Origin: Clavibacter capsici
Lineage (GTDB): Bacteria; Actinomycetota; Actinomycetes; Actinomycetales; Microbacteriaceae
Length of the DNA: 64,000 nucleotides
NCBI RefSeq assembly: GCF_001280205.1
Contig: NZ_CP012573.1
Span: 1,860,001-1,924,000 of the forward strand
Direction of reading: 5' to 3'
Each line of letters opens with the position of its first letter. Within the stretch, counting starts at the first letter, position 1. Shown in pieces: positions 30,039 through 31,039 of the stretch. The translations under genes and the position numbers were made by a program. Below the pieces are notes generated by a model that did no database searches, was not told the origin of the DNA, and was given only the letters and a program-made list of their open reading frames with translations.

Positions 30039-31039
30039 CTACCTCCCCCACCGCAGGGCGGCGGTCTGCACGGGTGAGTCCCACAGCTCGATGAGCTCGT
30101 CGTCGAGCAGCAGCACCGTGAGGGACAGTCCCTCCATGTCGAGGGCCGTCACGTAGTCTCCCACGAGGCTCCGGGCGACGGTCAGGCCGGCCTCGTGGAG
30201 CACGGCGGCCGCGCGGGCGTACGCGATGTGCAGCTCCGACAGCGGCGTCGCGCCCATCCCGTTCACGAGCAGGAGCACGCGGCTGCCCGCGGGCGCCGCG
30301 AGGTCCTCGAGCACGGGGTCCAGCAGGCGCTCGACGATGGCGTCGACCGGCTCGAGCGGCAGGCGCACGCGACCGGGCTCGCCGTGGATCCCGATGCCGA
30401 TCTCCATCTCGTCGTCCGCGAGCACGAAGCTCGGCTCGCCGGCGTGCGGGACGGTGCAGGCGCGGATGGCGACCCCCATGCTCCGCACCCGGGCGACCAC
30501 GCGCTCCGCGATCGCCGCGACGCCGTCGAGGTCGTCGCCGCGCTCGGCCGCGGCCCCGCCAGGCGCTCGACCAGCACCGTGCCCGCGACGCCCCGACGCC
30601 CGGCCGTGAAGAGCGAGTCGGTGACGGCGACGTCGTCGTCGACCACCACCGTCCGCACGCGCACCCCCTCGGCCTCCGCGAGCTCGGCCGCGGTCTCGAA
30701 GTTGAGGACGTCGCCCGTGTAGTTCTTCACGACGTGCAGCACGCCCGCGCCGGCGTCCACCGTGAGCGTCGCGGCGACGATGGGATCCGGCGTGGGGCTG
30801 GTGAAGACCGGCCCGGGCACGGCGGCGTCGAGCATGCCGTGGCCGACGAACCCGGTGTGCAGCGGCTCGTGCCCGCTGCCCCCGCCGCTGACGAGCGCGA
30901 CGCGGCCCGGCCGGGTGGGCGCGGCCCGGCGGACGTACAGCGGATCCGCGCTCAGCGTCACGAGGTCGGCGTGCGCCGCGGCGAACCCCGCGACCGCCTC
31001 CTCGGCGACGGTCCTCGGATCGTTGACCAGCTTCTTCAT
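30039..31039 (-). pseudogene. dhaK: Dihydroxyacetone kinase substrate-binding subunit DhaK, broken by a one-base deletion
   Basis: From ATG 31039 the product is a good DhaK (MKKLVNDP; SGGGSGHEPLHTGFVGHGMLDAAVPG) for about 161 residues to VLVERLAG. It then runs out of frame to a stop at 30263. The remaining half (AAAERGDDLDGVAAIAERVV; catalytic-His segment IGIGIHGEPG; LLVNGMGATPLSELHIAY) continues in another frame to the stop at 30039. The break is at a run of four G on the minus strand (30554-30557), where five would restore one 333-residue protein. It is either a real null mutation, a phase-variable G tract or a sequencing error. Confidence 0.85.

What the first reader, a model, noticed from the sequence alone, without database searches (positions are those of the whole stretch)
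30039..31039. dhaK is split by a one-base deletion in a G run inside an otherwise intact dha operon
Two good DhaK halves lie in different frames and meet at GGGG (minus strand, 30554-30557); five G would join them into one 333-residue protein. dhaL and dhaM are intact and tightly coupled downstream. If real, this strain cannot use dihydroxyacetone through DhaKLM, or the G tract allows slippage or phase variation. About 161 native residues would be followed by 97 out-of-frame residues.
Basis: seen in the sequence. Interest (0 to 1): 0.7.

Follow-up and report, generated by a model that had tools for sequence, protein, structure and literature searches.

The report
Frameshifted dhaK gene in Clavibacter capsici
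One subunit gene of a three-part dihydroxyacetone kinase is broken by a single reading-frame shift in this plant bacterium, while its relatives keep it whole; this is an ordinary broken gene or a sequencing slip, and a second kinase gene of the same family is intact.

Summary
On the minus strand dhaK (31039 to 30039) lies in two frames that meet at about 30551-30561. All 17 same-genus genomes compared have an unbroken 333-residue dhaK; of the 18, only this one is split. A survey of about 55 genes per relative found no other frame switch in the window. Genome length identifies Clavibacter capsici PF008. The break separates two conserved active-site histidines, so DhaK is probably dead if the sequence is right. 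Programmed frameshifting is not supported (0 of 17 relatives), nor phase variation: the run is four G, one of 385 G/C runs of that length in the window. Loss of DhaKLM would not by itself stop use of dihydroxyacetone, since an intact fused Dak1-Dak2 gene lies elsewhere on the chromosome. I cannot separate a recent pseudogene from an assembly slip: a weak excess of amino-acid changes favours loss, and all three clear breaks found in 464 kb lie near short runs, which fits both. Ordinary.

The parts
30560..31039 (-). dhaK, upstream piece (residues 1-160; GGGSGHEP motif, whose histidine aligns to position 56 of E. coli DhaK)
   Evidence: TIGR02363 8.6e-77, Dak1 3.3e-61; E. coli DhaK 4lrx 1.8e-60
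30551..30561 (-). place where the frame changes, beside a run of four G at 30554-30557
30039..30551 (-). dhaK, downstream piece (170 residues and stop; GIHGEPG, whose histidine aligns to position 218 of E. coli DhaK)
   Evidence: TIGR02363 2.3e-59, Dak1 4.2e-57; E. coli DhaK 4lry 8.4e-49
30263..30558 (-). out-of-frame tail read from the dhaK start to the stop ending at 30263
29382..30035 (-). dhaL, intact, 217 residues
   Evidence: TIGR02365 6.3e-68, 228.3 bits, cut-off 138.3
28648..29385 (-). dhaM, intact, 245 residues: EIIA and HPr domains, no EI domain matched
   Evidence: TIGR02364 117.6 bits, cut-off 98.25; PF03610 and PF00381
31319..32071 (+). divergent neighbour, read as glpF (name recalled from the sequence, not scanned)
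   Evidence: open frame and codon score
32101..33618 (+). glpK, glycerol kinase
   Evidence: open frame; DNA match over annotated glpK in 9 of the 12 plasmid records hit

Best explanation
dhaK of this strain is a recent, lineage-specific pseudogene. A small slip at a short G run shifted the frame in the middle of the Dak1 domain, so translation gives about 160 native residues and then a foreign tail. The two pieces each carry one of two active-site histidines, so no working dihydroxyacetone-binding subunit is made, and DhaL and DhaM lack their partner. Shown: the frame switch, its absence in 17 relatives, the open neighbours, the intact fused kinase gene. Inferred: that the sequence is right, that the product is inactive, and that the fused kinase covers part of the task.
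For: Unbroken in 17 of 17 same-genus genomes, split only here. No other switch in the window; 7 of 10 relatives show none, the other three 1, 2 and 4. In 400 kb of the same chromosome against G008, three switches were reported among 299 genes with a hit; one mirrors a break in G008, so two are clear. The published table gives 79 pseudogenes for this genome. On the terminal branch dhaK has 18 non-synonymous and 34 synonymous changes, against 82 and 373 summed over 16 relatives (Fisher p 0.009). In the upstream piece this genome departs from the outgroup consensus at 7 of 100 well-conserved columns, the 17 relatives at 3 or 4. Split or partial Dak1 genes are seen in 3 further genomes (G041, G083, G022) of the 67 with a match, 100 searched.
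Against: Within this genome dhaK does not differ clearly from eight other genes (18:34 against 53:145, p 0.30). Set against the relatives' ratio, z is 1.8, and the intact G015 ranks higher. In the downstream piece this genome departs at 8 of 96 conserved columns, no more than the relatives (8 to 10). The changes are mild and the motifs kept, as in a gene that worked until recently or still does. The three clear breaks found in 464 kb of this genome all lie within 15 bases of a run of four or more, against about 20% of random places, which fits sequencing error as well as natural slippage. No reads and no sister strain were available.
Confidence: 0.55

Rival explanations
1. Assembly or base-calling error: the cell has an unbroken dhaK and the deposited sequence slipped at a short G run.
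For: The break sits beside a homopolymer run, as do both other clear breaks found (3 of 3 against about 20% of random places). Both pieces keep low dN/dS (0.109 and 0.163) and their motifs.
Against: The window has 408 G/C runs of four or more in coding sequence, runs of five and six among them, and the survey, which compares predicted genes of 100 residues or more with ten relatives, found one switch. A mild excess of amino-acid changes in this dhaK.
Confidence: 0.4
2. Phase variation: the G run changes length between cells and switches dhaK on and off.
For: The frame changes at a G run.
Against: Four G is short; the window holds 504 G/C runs of four or more, against a mean of 1395 in 20 mononucleotide shuffles. 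None of 17 relatives shows the broken state.
Confidence: 0.03
3. Programmed ribosomal frameshifting, or two separately made halves that assemble into a working DhaK.
For: Both pieces keep their family match, and the codon score picks a gene start within the downstream piece.
Against: A programmed site would be expected in relatives; all 17 read in one frame. The same codon score picked no gene for the upstream piece.
Confidence: 0.02

Closest known systems
PTS-dependent dihydroxyacetone kinase DhaKLM (E. coli type)
   Same: Gene order dhaK-dhaL-dhaM, family matches of all parts, E. coli DhaK as best solved relative of both pieces
   Different: dhaK is in two frames; DhaM has EIIA and HPr domains but no EI domain was matched
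Fused Dak1-Dak2 dihydroxyacetone kinase family protein (NF011049)
   Same: An intact 584-residue copy with its Dak1 part at G000:C1:693833-694774
   Different: A separate gene; under the cut-off of TIGR02361 glycerone kinase (363.2 of 574.95 bits), so its substrate is not settled
Pseudogenes of Clavibacter genomes
   Same: 18 to 114 pseudogenes per genome in the published table, 79 for C. capsici
   Different: This gene was not found discussed in the paper searches made (listings)

Membership tests
DhaK of the PTS-dependent kinase (TIGR02363) | One open frame of about 330 residues over the whole model | tested here: not met
   Two frames; pieces score 258.4 and 201.1 bits, each under the cut-off of 406.25; relatives have 333 residues
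DhaK of the PTS-dependent kinase (TIGR02363) | Active-site histidines (E. coli positions 56 and 218; their roles by number are recalled; covalent binding of DHA to a DhaK histidine from passages of PMC6429413) | tested here: met
   Both encoded by alignment, but on opposite sides of the break
DhaKLM operon | dhaL and dhaM downstream, open and coupled | tested here: met
DhaKLM operon | Enzyme I of the PTS in the genome | tested here: inconclusive
   Two PEP-utilisers_N matches over the cut-off; which one serves the PTS was not tested
Pseudogene | Frame broken here and intact in relatives | tested here: met
   17 of 17 relatives intact
Pseudogene | Relaxed selection | tested here: inconclusive
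   p 0.009 against relatives' dhaK, p 0.30 against eight own genes, z 1.8 for the contrast
Pseudogene | Break confirmed in reads or sister strains | not testable with these tools
   No reads held; no other C. capsici genome reached
Phase-variable gene | Long homopolymer or repeat tract, with both states seen | tested here: not met
   Run of four; broken state in 0 of 17 relatives; states within the population not testable
Programmed frameshift | Frame switch conserved among relatives | tested here: not met
   0 of 17

The most novel reading that the evidence does not exclude
C. capsici as a species has lost the PTS-dependent kinase and relies on the fused Dak1-Dak2 kinase, while dhaL and dhaM are kept for another task, as a step in narrowing its carbon use on its host.
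Probability: 0.06. Interest if true: 0.3.

Novelty: new member of a known kind. Interest (0 to 1): 0.12.

Why it matters
Little beyond annotation. If real, this strain's DhaKLM is off, and its growth on dihydroxyacetone or glycerol should be read with that in mind. If an error, the deposited sequence has a residual slip, and others of its listed pseudogenes may be of the same kind.

Tried and rejected
Programmed frameshifting: rejected, the switch is absent in 17 of 17 relatives. Phase variation: rejected on run length and lack of a second state among relatives. General poor assembly: not supported, one switch in the window and two clear ones in 400 kb. Promoter and terminator scan of 28500-31400: none found, near the number expected by chance, so uninformative. 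Residues found only in this genome: 4 in the upstream piece (the most of 18 genomes), 2 in the downstream piece (tied third), all mild. Base changes found in one genome only: 4 synonymous and 8 non-synonymous in this dhaK, 34 and 35 summed over the relatives, too few to decide. Named sister strains: no Clavibacter among the 80 loci kept of 509 in the named genome scan (which warns that near records may be left out), nor among 12 plasmid records. The genome paper of the strain is not held, so its sequencing method is not known to me. A loose paper search for further C. capsici isolates listed unrelated papers. One search aligned 17 loci in one orientation only and misread ten; one search replaces it.

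Full report
Observation. On the minus strand of the window the dhaK start (31039) opens a frame whose first 160 residues match DhaK (TIGR02363 positions 1-160; Dak1 positions 2-143), and a piece in another frame (30551-30039) matches the rest (TIGR02363 164-329; Dak1 148-313). The start frame runs on to a stop that ends at 30263, 258 codons in all.

Genome. The window lies on contig 1 (3,056,296 bases) of a genome of 3,241,713 bases in three contigs. Table 2 of PMC5358740 (section 11 read) gives exactly 3,241,713 bases and two plasmids for C. michiganensis subsp. capsici; passages of the paper name the strain as PF008. The same table gives 3,063,596 for subsp. nebraskensis, the length of the contig of G008. 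A passage of PMC8844524 gives an N50 of 3,271,838 for strain LMG7333T, the length of contig 1 of G012. The window is therefore from Clavibacter capsici PF008, of a species that causes canker in pepper (passage).

Relatives. All 17 same-genus genomes given by the search carry dhaK as one open frame of 333 residues, 87 to 90% identical in DNA to the window's gene; the length difference that all 17 share is placed at 30555-30561. One of the 17 (L023) has two further compensating gaps near 30515. So intact copies exist throughout those genomes, and the split is seen in 1 of 18.

Is the local sequence sound? With genes of 100 residues or more predicted in ten relatives that have about 60 kb of syntenic sequence each, tblastn found one frame switch in the window, at 30555, flagged by all ten; about 55 genes per relative had a hit. 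Turned on the ten relatives, the survey gave none in seven, one in G012, two in G013 (one of them at a seam of two fetched stretches) and four in G015. In 400 kb from elsewhere on the chromosome against 400 kb of G008, three switches were reported among 299 genes with a hit, of 342; I read one of them as mirroring a break in G008's own gene, because the reverse comparison shows one switch there, among 294 genes of 335. That leaves two. Breaks are thus rare here, and no more than expected for a genome with 79 annotated pseudogenes.

Slippage. The break adjoins a run of four G. The window has 385 G/C runs of four, 109 of five and 10 of six; 408 of them lie in coding sequence as I predicted it. 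The run is not remarkable. Still, the three clear breaks found in the 464 kb examined all have a run of four or more within 15 bases, against about 20% of random places; the break in G008 has none. That points to slippage, in the cell or in the sequencing, and cannot tell the two apart.

Selection. On the pieces taken apart, median dN from this genome to relatives is 0.051 and 0.047, against 0.025 and 0.025 among relatives; median dN/dS is 0.109 and 0.163 against 0.068 and 0.095. dhaL (dN 0.080 against 0.066) and dhaM (0.050 against 0.046) differ less. On a tree of 17 genomes (this one and 16; G002 dropped because a gene was missing) the terminal branch has 18 non-synonymous and 34 synonymous changes in dhaK, against 82 and 373 summed over relatives (p 0.009), but 53 and 145 in eight other genes of this genome (p 0.30). 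The contrast of the two gives z 1.8, and this genome ranks second of 17, behind the intact G015. At columns at least 80% conserved in 80 outgroups it departs at 7 of 100 in the upstream piece (relatives 3 or 4) and at 8 of 96 in the downstream piece (relatives 8 to 10). This is a weak hint of relaxed selection, not a proof.

Function. DHA is bound by DhaK through a hemiaminal on a histidine and phosphorylated from ATP on DhaL, which DhaM recharges (passages of PMC6429413). By alignment the histidine at position 218 of E. coli DhaK falls in the downstream piece and that at position 56, in GGGSGHEP, in the upstream piece; which of them does what is recalled. A product that stops being native after about 160 residues should not work. 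The genome has another Dak1 gene: a fused Dak1-Dak2 protein of 584 residues (NF011049, 735.6 bits), intact. A second Dak1 match is listed for each of the 17 relatives. A passage of PMC4777399 says that in K. pneumoniae the ATP-dependent kinase contributes little, so backup is plausible but not shown.

Base rate. Of 100 genomes drawn from the family, this one included, 67 have a Dak1 match and 33 have none. Split or partial Dak1 genes are seen in this genome, G041, G083 and G022; the other three were not examined further, and G041 is 86% complete. Loss of Dak1 genes is not unusual in the family.

Verdict. The frame break is real in the sequence given. It is most likely a recent pseudogene of this lineage (0.55), or else an assembly slip (0.40). 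Regulated switching and programmed frameshifting are poorly supported. Paper searches: Clavibacter with dihydroxyacetone (4 listed, none on this gene by title and abstract start); dihydroxyacetone kinase, pseudogene, frameshift and dhaK (2 listed; passages of PMC2909200 read); Clavibacter with glycerol and dihydroxyacetone kinase (none). Listings only. The broken gene was not found in print in that library by these searches; the genome's own paper is not held, and the GenBank list of pseudogenes was not seen.

Noticed in passing
window 28648-29385 (-): DhaM is EIIA plus HPr without an EI domain, shorter than the E. coli form (matches 2-242 of 473 positions of NF008478).
   Followed up: partly
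G000:C1 near 731357 and 944724 (loci L154 and L165): Two further genes that G008 has in one frame show a frame switch in this genome; only the presence of a nearby run was looked at.
   Followed up: partly
L149, L128, L150 (G015): Relative G015 shows four frame switches in about 60 kb and a high share of amino-acid changes in its intact dhaK (6 of 13 terminal-branch changes).
   Followed up: no
L058 (record WNZI01000005.1, titled Vibrio cholerae strain 35D): A record titled Vibrio cholerae encodes a relative 68% identical to the downstream DhaK piece and sits between Arthrobacter records in the list; perhaps a mislabelled or contaminated assembly.
   Followed up: no
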